In this document: piece after piece, positions 24,175 through 27,088 of the stretch
Position numbering within the stretch: position 1 is the stretch's first letter
How the letters are laid out: the number at the start of each line of letters is the position of its first letter
Origin: Lachnospiraceae bacterium
GTDB taxonomy: Bacteria; Bacillota; Clostridia; Lachnospirales; Lachnospiraceae
Length of the DNA: 64,000 nucleotides
Reading direction: 5' to 3'
Assembly (NCBI GenBank): GCA_014804655.1
Contig: JAAUZK010000031.1
Location: 12,477-76,476, forward strand
The notes under the pieces: model-generated
What the model saw: the letters and a program-made list of their open reading frames with translations, nothing else
Told to the model about the DNA's origin: nothing
The model's database searches: none
Position numbers and translations under genes: made by a program

Positions 24175-24691
24175 AATCGAGTAGGAGGTAGGCGATTATT
24201 TCGCCTACCGACCTCTCACACCACCGTGCGTACCGTTCGGTACAATATATCGAGTTACACTCTTCATTACCCGTTCTACCGCCTGTTGAACAAACCGGTC
24301 TACTACGGTTGGTACTCCAAGATTTCTTACTCCGCCGTCAGGTTTTGGTATCTCCACCCTGCGGACTGGTTGCGGTTTGTACTTCCTTGTCCGCAACTGT
24401 TCTCTGATACTTTCGCCGTTTTCCGAAAGGTAATCGCCAAGCTCTTCTACGTTCATGCCATCCACACCTGCCGCATTTACTCGTACTTCCGGCAACCTTT
24501 TGGACTTCAATGCTTTTAGCCGCCTTATCCTTATTTCCGAGCCTTATATGCGGTTCCTGTCCGTCAGGTCAGAGGTTTGCCTTCAGATTCCGTCTCACGG
24601 CGGACACCCTTGCTGTTCGGCTATGTGCTTCGTCGTTGCCTGCGCGCACTCGGGACTTTCAGCCGTTAGAGTTCGCCCATGCTGGGCGAAC
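24175..24691 (-). mobile_element. Deleted group II intron with 5' end, RT N-terminal remnant and domain V/VI-like 3' end
   Basis: 5' end GTTCGCCCAGCATGGGCGAACTCTAACGGCTGAAAGTCC; RT fragment AAGVDGMNVEELGDYLSENGESIREQLRTRKYKPQPVRRVEIPKPDGGVRNLGVPTVVDRFVQQAVERV; 3' GTGTGAGAGGTCGGTAGGCGAAATAATCGCCTACCTCCTACTCGATT. Ends approximate. Confidence 0.8.
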
Positions 24692-24695
24692 TAAA

Positions 24696-24731
24696 GATAC
24701 CCCATGCACCACTACCGGCACATGGGGTATC
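24696..24731 (-). terminator. Terminator hairpin at the 5' exon of the group II intron
   Basis: GATACCCCATG-TGCCGGTAGTGGTG-CATGGGGTATC then TTTA, followed directly by the intron 5' end. Confidence 0.75.
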
Positions 24732-24861
24732 CCCTCATCCACTAACCAGACAATTACTGATCAAATCTATATGCTCCCACGTTGTCTCCGCATTTGATCT
24801 TGACCAGGAATTCTTCATTAAGATTCGGTGCCTACACCGAAGCGCGGCAACCCTATTTTTA

Positions 24862-24987
24862 TTAATGCTTTACTGCTTTATGAACAGCTAATGTCTTACC
24901 TGCATTACTTTTAGCACCTTTGCTTGAGGCGTTAGAAGCAAGAGTTTTAGCCGCTTTACCAACTTTACCGCCATGATGTACTGCCAT
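24862..24987 (-). CDS. 41-aa basic peptide downstream of the PIN gene
   Basis: MAVHHGGKVGKAAKTLASNASSKGAKSNAGKTLAVHKAVKH; strong SD AAAGGAGG 8 nt upstream of ATG. Confidence 0.65.
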   Translation of the reverse strand: MAVHHGGKVGKAAKTLASNASSKGAKSNAGKTLAVHKAVKH

Positions 24988-25023
24988 ACTATTTCCCTCC
25001 TTTGCGTTTTTTAACAACTCTTG

Positions 25024-25118
25024 CAAAAGATTATCTTCTCTGTTATATTTAAATTGCTTATATTCAAATGTCGAAAGATAATCTTTTGACATCAGAACCA
25101 GATATCTTATCTGGTTCT
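25024..25118 (-). promoter_or_regulatory. Two hairpins in the leader of the 41-aa peptide
   Basis: 14-bp perfect inverted repeat CAAAAGATTATCTT (25024-25037)/AAGATAATCTTTTG (25075-25088) and AGAACCAGAT atctt ATCTGGTTCT (25094-25118), no U-tract. Confidence 0.5.
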
Positions 25119-25152
25119 ATTTATGTAAAAGAATAATTCTATTACATTAATT

Positions 25153-25758
25153 TTATCCTACTGCTTTCTTACGTTTTATATATTCTTCATATGTGCCTTC
25201 CGGCAGATACAACCCATCTTCATACATCTTTTCCCACAAATTAATTGCATTTTTTTGAGTTATTATTCCTAATTCTTCCGCTTTTACCAATACATCTGCC
25301 GTAGTCCATAAAGTAATTCCATAATTTTCTACGTATCGACCGACATCTTTTAAGTTGTTACTTGCCAGACAAGCGGCTTCATCTTCCGCATAAAGCAACA
25401 TGCTTATAGCCGCTGACTCACCCTGCCCCATACTTTCCTTTAATTCTTTATACTTTATTCCCATATCGGAAAACGGGTCAATATCTCTAATATATACATT
25501 TCCGGAACCACTCACTTTATCTTTCTTATTATTTAACTGCATGAGCGGTGTTTGCAGACGTTCCCTTGTTCTAGTACTATATCCCAGTTCCTCTATTACT
25601 GCTTGCGGAACCACTATATCCATTTCCAATTTTGCAAATAATCTCGTCACAATTCCAAATTGATTTCTCCACAAAAAACTTGACAAAAAATCTGTATCGG
25701 AAATGACAATTTCATTTTTTTCGGCAGTATTGTTCATCTTGTCACGCTGATCAGTCAT
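25153..25758 (-). CDS. PIN-domain-like putative ribonuclease
   Basis: IVISDTDFLSSFLWR, VVPQAVIEELGY, GQGESAAISMLLYAEDEAACLASNNLKDVGRYV acidic motif pattern. Confidence 0.7.
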   Translation of the reverse strand: MTDQRDKMNNTAEKNEIVISDTDFLSSFLWRNQFGIVTRLFAKLEMDIVVPQAVIEELGYSTRTRERLQTPLMQLNNKKDKVSGSGNVYIRDIDPFSDMGIKYKELKESMGQGESAAISMLLYAEDEAACLASNNLKDVGRYVENYGITLWTTADVLVKAEELGIITQKNAINLWEKMYEDGLYLPEGTYEEYIKRKKAVG

Positions 25759-26506
25759 ATATAAGTGCCTCCTTAATCATTTTACTCCATCGCTCATCAC
25801 AAAATCCTTCAAGAGCAAATTGTTTATAAAGGCTGTCTGAAATGCGTTCTTCTTTATGAGCACGTTCAAGAAGCTGACTGTATTGACCATATGATTTCTC
25901 CATTTCTTCCTCAGGAGATTTCATATACAAGGACATATCTGTTCCCGTATCCTTAATAATATCTATAATATTTGAATTTATTAATTTATGATAAACAAGA
26001 TCATTAATTTTCCCTTCCTGATGCAGTCTGTATACAACTGCCTGAAAGCTCATACGGAATAATTGACTTAATCTTACAATCTGTTCCAGCGTCCATTCTT
26101 TCACTTCATATTTTTCAGCAAACCATTCTAATGCGTCACAAGGAAGTAAAAAGTAAGATGCAAAGCGATCCGCCTCTTTTTCAGAATCTGTTATAGTTCC
26201 CTTTTTACAAATAACTCCCTGCCCTCGATGCTCAATTTCAATATGATATAATTCATGCGCAACGGTAAACCGCTGTCTCCCCAAAGACATCATAGAATTT
26301 ACGGCAATTATTTTAGAATCGCCATCAATAACGCACATCCCACTAATATTCTCTGTCATGGGCAGTCTGATAAAAGTATAACATTCCTGCGCAAGCAACA
26401 GGCCTATCACATCAATCGGCTCTGTACTCCCATAACCATTTATTCTTCTCAGTTTGACAGCTTCCGTCTGTAGTTGTAAATCATCTTTCATTACAATATC
26501 ACTCAC
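25751..26506 (-). CDS. ImmA/IrrE-family metallopeptidase
   Basis: RFTVAHELYHIEIEHRG (HExxH), EKEADRFASYFLLP. Confidence 0.88.
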   Translation of the reverse strand: MSDIVMKDDLQLQTEAVKLRRINGYGSTEPIDVIGLLLAQECYTFIRLPMTENISGMCVIDGDSKIIAVNSMMSLGRQRFTVAHELYHIEIEHRGQGVICKKGTITDSEKEADRFASYFLLPCDALEWFAEKYEVKEWTLEQIVRLSQLFRMSFQAVVYRLHQEGKINDLVYHKLINSNIIDIIKDTGTDMSLYMKSPEEEMEKSYGQYSQLLERAHKEERISDSLYKQFALEGFCDERWSKMIKEALIYD

Positions 26507-26852
26507 TCTCTAAACTAACTTTAATCCGTCTCAAATTCAATGCAATCTGCTGTACCTTTGAAACTACTTCAATATCATCCAATGTTAGATCTTTTGCCCG
26601 ATAAGCTACTGCAAGAGGACGATATTCCTGTTCCTCCAAAACAGCATCTGCCTCACACCCGAATAAACTGCATGCCTTTTCAATCAATGCCATTCCAAGG
26701 CTTCTTTCGCCAACTTCAAATTTTGCAATCAAAGAGCGGTCTACCTGAAGAAATTTTGCAATCTGCTCTTGAGTAAAATCATTTTGCTTTCTAATTTCTT
26801 TAAAACGCCTCCCGGCATTTACCAGCATTTCATTTCTCTCTTTGTCTGCCAT
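26499..26852 (-). CDS. XRE-family HTH regulator
   Basis: RFKEIRKQNDFTQEQIAKFLQVDRSLIAKFEVGERSLGMALIEKACSLFG; SD GGAGG. Confidence 0.9.
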   Translation of the reverse strand: MADKERNEMLVNAGRRFKEIRKQNDFTQEQIAKFLQVDRSLIAKFEVGERSLGMALIEKACSLFGCEADAVLEEQEYRPLAVAYRAKDLTLDDIEVVSKVQQIALNLRRIKVSLESE

Positions 26853-26892
26853 ATGAATTTCCTCCGATTATATAAGCATCTTTTGTTATCTT

Positions 26893-26948
26893 AATATACA
26901 ACGCAATTGTCACATTGTCAATATTAATATGTTTAAAAAATGTGACAA
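26893..26948 (-). promoter_or_regulatory. Promoter and palindromic operator of the XRE-ImmA-PIN operon
   Basis: Minus TTGACA - 17 nt - TATATT; 10-bp arms TTGTCACATT (26907-26916) and AATGTGACAA (26939-26948). Confidence 0.7.
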
Positions 26949-27088
26949 ATTATATGCATTACTTTTCACATTCAAACCAATCAGCCACTGCCATAGCATT
27001 TAACTTTGACATCATTTCTCCGCAAATCTCAAGTATTTCACCCTAAATTTATTTCTGCAGTTTCCCTTACTACAGATTTGCAAATATT

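What the first reader, a model, noticed from the sequence alone, without database searches (positions are those of the whole stretch)
24862..26948. XRE - ImmA/IrrE peptidase - PIN nuclease - 41-aa basic peptide operon as a candidate novel toxin-antitoxin/defence system
Seen: four co-directional genes; HTH/ImmA and ImmA/PIN overlap by 8 bp, so they are likely co-translated. A clear TTGACA-17-TATATT promoter is overlapped by a perfect 10-bp inverted repeat (TTGTCACATT/AATGTGACAA). The block ends in a short, highly basic peptide and a strong hairpin. Knowledge: ImmA/IrrE peptidases cleave XRE-type repressors (e.g. ICEBs1 ImmR/ImmA), and Xre-COG2856 pairs and PIN proteins are recognised toxin-antitoxin components. 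Inference: a damage- or phage-triggered circuit where ImmA cleaves the repressor and releases a PIN RNase, with the peptide as inhibitor, toxin or signal. I do not know this four-part arrangement as a characterised system.
Basis: partly seen in the sequence, partly recalled or inferred. Interest (0 to 1): 0.75.

Follow-up and report, generated by a model that had tools for sequence, protein, structure and literature searches.

The report
Immune operon plus antisense-RNA-controlled mini-gene
The 'four-gene system' is really two things joined end to end: a three-gene toxin/defence operon of a type predicted in 2009, and a separate, apparently undescribed mini-cassette (a predicted antisense RNA that switches a 41-residue basic protein gene) which turns up behind several unrelated bacterial immune operons.

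Summary
Observation confirmed: HTH (26499-26852), ImmA/IrrE (25751-26506), PIN (25153-25758) and a 41-aa peptide (24862-24987) lie on the minus strand, with 8-bp overlaps and an operator-embedded promoter. HTH-ImmA-PIN recurs in nine lineages, but the peptide accompanies it in only two. The same peptide lies behind MqsR/SocA-Panacea toxin-antitoxins, AAA+DUF4276 pairs and an RmrA gene. The three-gene part matches the Xre-COG2856-PIN system predicted by Makarova 2009, and its operator is conserved.

The new finding is in the 165-bp gap before the peptide. It holds a conserved element, not matched by Rfam, that reads on the opposite strand as a ~70-nt antisense RNA gene: TTGnnn-17/18-extended -10 promoter (14/14 elements) and a terminator-like hairpin. 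In the sense mRNA, segment I pairs with II (strong covariation), and II is alternatively complementary to the Shine-Dalgarno region: the layout of antisense-controlled attenuation. Elements follow HTH-ImmA(-PIN), MqsR-Panacea, AAA-DUF4276, RmrA or IetS genes and precede the 41-aa ORF, a different 32-40-aa ORF, or another gene. A similar layout precedes ICE replication genes. Transcription, switching and peptide function are untested.

The parts
26893..26921 (-). promoter of the three-gene operon, TTGACA-17-TATATT
   Evidence: 11 of 12 consensus matches
26907..26948 (.). operator: TTGTCACATT / AATGTGACAA, arms 22 bp apart, overlapping the promoter
   Evidence: same layout (TTGTCAYAA..TTRTGACAA) in 9 of 10 homologous operons
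26499..26852 (-). XRE-family HTH regulator, 117 aa
   Evidence: Pfam HTH_3 6.8e-10
25751..26506 (-). ImmA/IrrE zinc peptidase, 251 aa, HELYH motif
   Evidence: Pfam Peptidase_M78 9e-18; PADLOC capP 1.4e-24
25153..25758 (-). PIN-domain protein, 201 aa (putative toxin/effector)
   Evidence: Pfam PIN_4 below cutoff, PADLOC PDC-S70 7.5e-9, AlphaFold/Foldseek matches to PIN proteins, invariant D21/E57/E114/D138
25021..25049 (+). predicted antisense promoter, TTGCAA-17-TATATT with TG extended -10
   Evidence: conserved in all 14 elements compared
25056..25126 (+). predicted cis-antisense sRNA, about 70 nt, two hairpins, complementary to the peptide mRNA leader
   Evidence: promoter and terminator positions, fold; start and end are estimates
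25094..25118 (+). terminator-like hairpin of the antisense sRNA (the window copy has a weak U-tract)
   Evidence: the only terminator-like site in 24700-27000
25076..25088 (-). mRNA leader segment I (CAAAAGATTATCT)
   Evidence: pairs with segment II; covariation
25024..25036 (-). mRNA leader segment II (AGATAATCTTTTG); its 3' part is also complementary to the SD region
24996..25005 (-). segment III / Shine-Dalgarno region GCAAAGGAGG of the peptide gene
24862..24987 (-). 41-aa basic peptide (predicted pI 10.8), MAVHHGGKVGKAAKTLASNASSKGAKSNAGKTLAVHKAVKH
   Evidence: purifying selection; weak match phrog_20619 5.9e-5
24205..24604 (-). truncated group II intron downstream of the peptide gene (not part of either system)

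Best explanation
Two modules stand in tandem. (1) HTH-ImmA-PIN is a three-component toxin-antitoxin/defence operon. The HTH protein represses the operon through the conserved palindrome (supported by footprinting). ImmA is proposed to cleave it under stress, freeing expression of the PIN nuclease (inferred from ImmR/ImmA). (2) Behind it lies a portable cassette: an antisense sRNA on the opposite strand, an attenuator leader and a small basic protein gene. The peptide mRNA is probably made by read-through from the upstream operon (inferred). Its leader has three segments. If I pairs with II, the Shine-Dalgarno (III) is open and the peptide can be translated. If the antisense RNA covers I, II is free to pair with III and shut the ribosome site. 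The peptide would then be made only when the upstream operon is induced enough to outrun the antisense RNA, making it a gated second output of the immune operon. The sequence signals for the sRNA, leader and operator are shown; the switching, the trigger and the peptide's activity are inferred.
For: Three-gene operon in nine lineages with a conserved operator in 9 of 10 loci, PIN acidic residues invariant, PIN-like fold; predicted as a three-component system in PMC2701414. Cassette: the gap from upstream stop to peptide ATG is about 145-170 bp. Antisense promoter with -35 TTG 14/14, TG extended -10 14/14, spacer 17 in 12 and 18 in 2, with variable spacer sequence. Terminator-like hairpin on the antisense strand. 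I:II covariation score 0.595 vs 0.214 +/- 0.043 shuffled and at most 0.267 slid. Own I:II is the best match in 12 of 14 swap tests, permutation p below 5e-5; II:III p 0.0037. Peptide under purifying selection. All 15 non-replication elements recovered in the R1 family survey follow HTH-ImmA, TA or defence genes.
Against: No RNA-seq or experiment: sRNA, read-through and switching are predictions. In the window alone the antisense promoter (9 of 12) is not significant (17% of shuffles reach it) and the U-tract is weak; the case is comparative. L009 and L016 pair less well. L002 has lost about 101 bp including the sRNA yet keeps the peptide intact. L030 and L097 have the peptide without a recognisable element. 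PIN fold matches are modest (best E 1.6e-3). Calling the survey elements at 30-38 bits real rested on my inspection of promoter, hairpins and SD.
Confidence: 0.6

Rival explanations
1. The antisense RNA and the 41-aa peptide form a type I toxin-antitoxin (addiction) module riding on immune operons, as SymE/SymR does in defence hotspots: the peptide is toxic and the RNA silences it.
For: Small basic ORF with a predicted cis-antisense RNA over its 5' UTR; symE type I TA reported in a Pseudomonas defence hotspot (PMC10250203).
Against: No membrane-spanning segment, composition A/K/S/G/H (GRAVY -0.37); L002 lacks the sRNA with an intact peptide ORF; peptide occurs without the element in L030, L097, L031, L032; the element also precedes other ORFs.
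Confidence: 0.22
2. One reading: HTH, ImmA, PIN and the peptide are one four-component system, with the peptide as inhibitor, toxin or signal of the PIN protein.
For: Four co-directional genes in the window and L002-L004 and, independently, in L027.
Against: Seven of nine intact three-gene lineages lack the peptide; the peptide occurs behind unrelated systems; peptides of L027 (behind PIN) and L009 (behind Panacea) differ by only 3 nonsynonymous changes whereas L027 and the window differ by 15.
Confidence: 0.06
3. The gap element is a DNA operator or inverted-repeat regulatory site, or a riboswitch-like leader with no antisense RNA.
For: Inverted repeats; the sense mRNA can fold into two alternative structures; sense G-U exceeds A-C only modestly, 11 vs 5.
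Against: Arms vary freely but stay complementary within each locus, unlike a protein site shared by unrelated operons; an extended -10 promoter and a terminator-like hairpin on the opposite strand are conserved in position; no Rfam riboswitch.
Confidence: 0.12

Closest known systems
Xre-COG2856-PIN/RelE three-component toxin-antitoxin (Makarova et al. 2009, PMC2701414)
   Same: Xre HTH, COG2856 HExxH peptidase and PIN protein in one operon; peptidase proposed to cleave the Xre repressor
   Different: Here HTH and peptidase are separate genes and a palindromic operator is seen to be conserved; the peptide cassette is not part of that prediction
ICEBs1 ImmR/ImmA
   Same: XRE repressor gene followed by an ImmA-type protease gene
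   Different: Linked gene is a PIN protein in the same operon; no ICE excision genes seen among the neighbouring ORFs
CapH/CapP (PADLOC)
   Same: ImmA matches capP (1.4e-24) and the HTH matches capH (1.9e-7)
   Different: The operon partner is a PIN protein, not a CBASS-type effector operon
Antisense-controlled attenuation of plasmid rep genes (pT181 / inc18 type; from general knowledge)
   Same: cis-antisense RNA complementary to an mRNA leader with mutually exclusive pairings; similar-looking elements precede ICE replication genes
   Different: Target is a small basic ORF behind immune operons; an anti-SD rather than a terminator is the proposed off-state; no match to Rfam ctRNA models
SymE/SymR type I toxin-antitoxin
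   Same: small protein under a cis-antisense RNA, associated with defence loci (PMC10250203)
   Different: no sequence relation seen in family scans; toxicity unknown; different upstream systems

Membership tests
Xre-COG2856-PIN three-component TAS | Xre/Cro HTH protein | tested here: met
   Pfam HTH_3 6.8e-10
Xre-COG2856-PIN three-component TAS | COG2856/ImmA-IrrE peptidase with HExxH | tested here: met
   Peptidase_M78 9e-18; HELYH in P0002
Xre-COG2856-PIN three-component TAS | PIN nuclease fold with acidic residues | tested here: met
   D21, E57, E114, D138 invariant; model pLDDT 79, Foldseek prob 0.99-1.00 to Nmd4-type PIN and VapC4; the sequence hit to PIN_4 is below cutoff
Xre-COG2856-PIN three-component TAS | Conserved operon across lineages | tested here: met
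   nine intact lineages
Xre-COG2856-PIN three-component TAS | Toxicity of PIN and neutralisation | not testable with these tools
   needs expression experiments
Four-component XRE-ImmA-PIN-peptide system | Peptide conserved with the three genes | tested here: not met
   present in 2 of 9 lineages and found behind other systems
CapHP | CBASS or other CapHP-linked effector operon alongside | tested here: not met
   the partner is PIN; ORFs flanking the operon look like histidine-kinase/response-regulator genes and a group II intron, by reading of the sequences
ImmR/ImmA of ICEBs1 | Location in an ICE with excision genes | tested here: inconclusive
   none seen among ORFs close to the operon; element boundaries over the whole window were not tested
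Antisense attenuator (pT181/inc18 type) | Promoter and terminator of an antisense RNA over the leader | tested here: met
   (sequence signals only)
Antisense attenuator (pT181/inc18 type) | Mutually exclusive I:II and II:III pairings | tested here: met
   (II:III weaker: p 0.0037 overall)
Antisense attenuator (pT181/inc18 type) | Match to a described ctRNA family | tested here: not met
   no Rfam hit at gathering score
Type I toxin-antitoxin | cis-antisense RNA over a small ORF | tested here: met
   sequence signals only
Type I toxin-antitoxin | Toxic peptide, usually a hydrophobic membrane peptide | tested here: inconclusive
   not hydrophobic; toxicity not testable; SymE-like non-membrane toxins exist

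The most novel reading that the evidence does not exclude
Bacteria of the Lachnospiraceae share a portable, RNA-gated 'tail' module: one antisense-RNA switch that plugs into the 3' end of unrelated immune operons (HTH-ImmA-PIN, MqsR-Panacea, AAA-DUF4276, RmrA, IetS) and couples their induction to production of a small basic protein, as a common fail-safe, amplifier or guard for anti-phage defence.
Probability: 0.3. Interest if true: 0.82.

Novelty: new variant of a known kind. Interest (0 to 1): 0.6.

Why it matters
If true, very different defence and toxin-antitoxin operons share a regulatory RNA tail with a conserved mini-protein. That would be a handle for discovering immune operons by their tail, a regulatory layer that is easily missed because its parts are a ~70-nt antisense RNA and a ~40-aa ORF, and a direct experimental question: what do these mini-proteins do when an immune operon fires? 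It also shows that gene adjacency in defence islands can mislead: the peptide looked like part of one system but is an independent traveller.

Tried and rejected
Four-gene system: rejected (peptide in 2 of 9 lineages). Sense-strand riboswitch: considered first from the alternative folds; replaced by the antisense-RNA reading once all compared elements showed the opposite-strand promoter and terminator; the switch logic is kept. Local sense promoter for the peptide: no conserved one found. Rfam: nothing at gathering score; Clostridium-PBP (25.9 bits vs threshold 94.4, E 0.34) taken as chance. Phage and plasmid tblastn with the peptide: no match; its low complexity may be masked by the filter, so this is not evidence of absence. 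Plasmid blastn with two elements: none. Viral DNA pattern for the element: chance hits only. Viral patterns for the peptide: only the contigs of L031, L032 and L021. phrog_20619 survey of the class: only the own genome. Weak R1 hits such as L117, L118, L120, L125-L127 were judged not to be elements.

Full report
THE OBSERVATION. The four genes are as described, all on the minus strand. Both overlaps are 8 bp, the HTH promoter is TTGACA-17-TATATT, and the 10-bp arms are perfect. HTH is HTH_3, the second protein is Peptidase_M78 with HELYH, and the third is PIN-like by weak sequence matches (PADLOC PDC-S70). The downstream hairpin is the peptide gene's terminator-like hairpin, uninterrupted in L004; in the window a truncated group II intron follows it.

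THE THREE-GENE OPERON. Close copies occur in three Lachnospiraceae MAG contigs (L002-L004). Distant copies (PIN 29-36% identical) occur in L016, L017, L018, L027, an Acetoanaerobium record (L015) and viral contigs L151, L152, L155, with broken or cut copies in L153 and L154. The operator-promoter layout (TTTGTCAYAA, 22-26 bp, TTRTGACAAA in most, second arm between -35 and -10) recurs in 9 of 10 loci examined (exact arms 8-14 bp), which supports autoregulation by the HTH protein. PIN D21, D23, E57, E114 and D138 are invariant. An AlphaFold model (pLDDT 79, nine sequences) places D21 just after strand 1, E57 in the helix after strand 2, and E114 and D138 at the starts of later helices. Foldseek's best matches include Nmd4-type PIN, VapC4 and VapC proteins, mostly with prob 0.9-1.0 but modest E-values and TM-scores. 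Makarova et al. 2009 predicted this three-component system (PMC2701414). So this part is a new member of a predicted kind.

THE PEPTIDE IS SEPARATE. Among nine intact lineages only the window group and L027 carry it. The same peptide (63-95% identical) occurs behind MqsR-like + SocA/Panacea pairs (L009, L029, L021), AAA_15 + DUF4276 pairs (L010, L011) and an RmrA gene (L028, 1.9e-138), and elsewhere (L030, L097, and high-GC viral contigs L031 and L032). It is a real gene: L010 and L011 differ by 12 synonymous and 0 nonsynonymous changes, and other between-genus pairs have pN/pS 0.05-0.46. Peptide relatedness does not follow the upstream system: L027 (PIN) and L009 (Panacea) differ by 3 nonsynonymous changes, L027 and the window by 15.

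THE GAP ELEMENT. In the window group (window, L003, L004), L027, L009, L029, L021, L010, L011 and L028 the gap from upstream stop to ATG is about 145-170 bp and carries one conserved element. Covariance model R1 was built from nine of these plus L016. A survey of 299 Lachnospiraceae genomes found it above 60 bits in nine genomes, including G876 (L128), which was not in the training set and has no 41-aa peptide. Hits at 30-38 bits were checked by eye: L132, L133, L134, L145, L146 and a decayed L147 are elements by architecture; several others are not. L129, L131, L148 and L149 show a similar layout before replication-type ORFs of integrase-bearing elements; whether they share ancestry is not tested.

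READING THE OPPOSITE STRAND. All 14 elements compared have TTGnnn, a 17-bp (12) or 18-bp (2) spacer and TAnnnT preceded by TGn, at nearly the same distance from the SD, with variable spacers. The window site is 25021-25049 (+). A hairpin with a T-rich tail follows about 45 bp downstream (25094-25118); in many other loci the tail is TTTTTCTATG or a longer T-run. The predicted product is a ~70-nt RNA of two hairpins complementary to the peptide mRNA leader. Most single copies are not significant against shuffles (window 0.17); the conservation is the evidence.

THE LEADER. Segment I (inside the antisense RNA region) is complementary to segment II (the antisense promoter spacer and -35): p at most 0.02 in 14 of 16 against shuffled II. 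On an alignment fitted to the model the 8-bp core scores 0.595 for covariation against 0.214 +/- 0.043; because such an alignment leans to the model, I also swapped strands between elements without any alignment: own II is the best of 14 for 12 elements (p below 5e-5), and II:III fits its own SD region better than swapped ones (p 0.0037). G-U over A-C (11 vs 5) leans to the sense RNA. The layout I:II versus II:III with an antisense RNA over I is that of antisense-controlled attenuation.

CONTEXT. All 15 non-replication elements recovered in the R1 genome survey lie directly behind, and co-directional with, HTH-ImmA(-PIN), MqsR-Panacea, AAA-DUF4276, RmrA or IetS (3.4e-65) genes; the viral L021 adds another MqsR-Panacea case. 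The loci are not all independent, but the upstream systems are of unrelated types. Downstream ORFs are the 41-aa peptide, a 32-40-aa MYIFRAWITTKDGTKIYAKTYGKRAFRIW family, or a larger gene (L128). Since no local sense promoter is conserved, read-through from the immune operon is the simplest source of sense RNA; this is inference.

HOW IT MOST LIKELY WORKS. HTH represses the operon; ImmA is proposed to relieve this; PIN is the proposed effector. Strong induction would deliver enough sense RNA, and disturb the antisense promoter enough, to open the SD and make the peptide. The type I toxin reading is possible but weakened by L002, where about 101 bp with the sRNA are missing and the peptide is intact (an assembly collapse between short repeats cannot be excluded), and by peptides without the element.

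NOVELTY. The three-gene operon is already predicted. I found no description of the antisense element in Rfam or in six searches of an open-access paper library; subscription papers were not searchable. I rate the whole a new variant of a known kind.

Noticed in passing
window 24205-24604 (-): Truncated group II intron (RF02001 domain, N-terminal RT fragment) just downstream of the peptide gene's terminator-like hairpin; absent from L004, where a rhodanese-like ORF follows.
   Followed up: partly
L002 5590-5670: About 101 bp removed between CTTTTACA and CTTTTGCA, deleting the antisense sRNA gene but leaving the peptide ORF and SD intact; real deletion or assembly collapse.
   Followed up: partly
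L132 4203-4296, L133 1119-1199, L134 4521-4607, L145 3824-3912, L146 3749-3847: Second family of small ORFs (MYIFRAWITTKDGTKIYAKTYGKRAFRIW..., 32-40 aa) behind the same kind of element, after HTH-ImmA or IetS genes.
   Followed up: partly
L129, L131, L148, L149: Elements of a similar layout between integrase/MobC-like ORFs and RepA- or primase-like ORFs, suggesting antisense control of replication genes in integrative elements.
   Followed up: partly
L031 5110-5235 and 6001-6126; L032 6001-6126: 41-aa peptide relatives in high-GC viral contigs, two copies in L031, without the element.
   Followed up: no
L016 3833-3922 (-): Element retained behind HTH-ImmA-PIN but the peptide ORF replaced by a fragment of a neighbouring repeated AAA-type gene.
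   Followed up: partly
L028 9345-9509 (+): Rfam TwoAYGGAY RNA (86.6 bits) a few kb from the RmrA-peptide locus.
   Followed up: no
L146, 336-785 bases after the element: HTH-ImmA, element and small ORF are followed by another Panacea-type antitoxin-like ORF: two immune-like modules in tandem.
   Followed up: no
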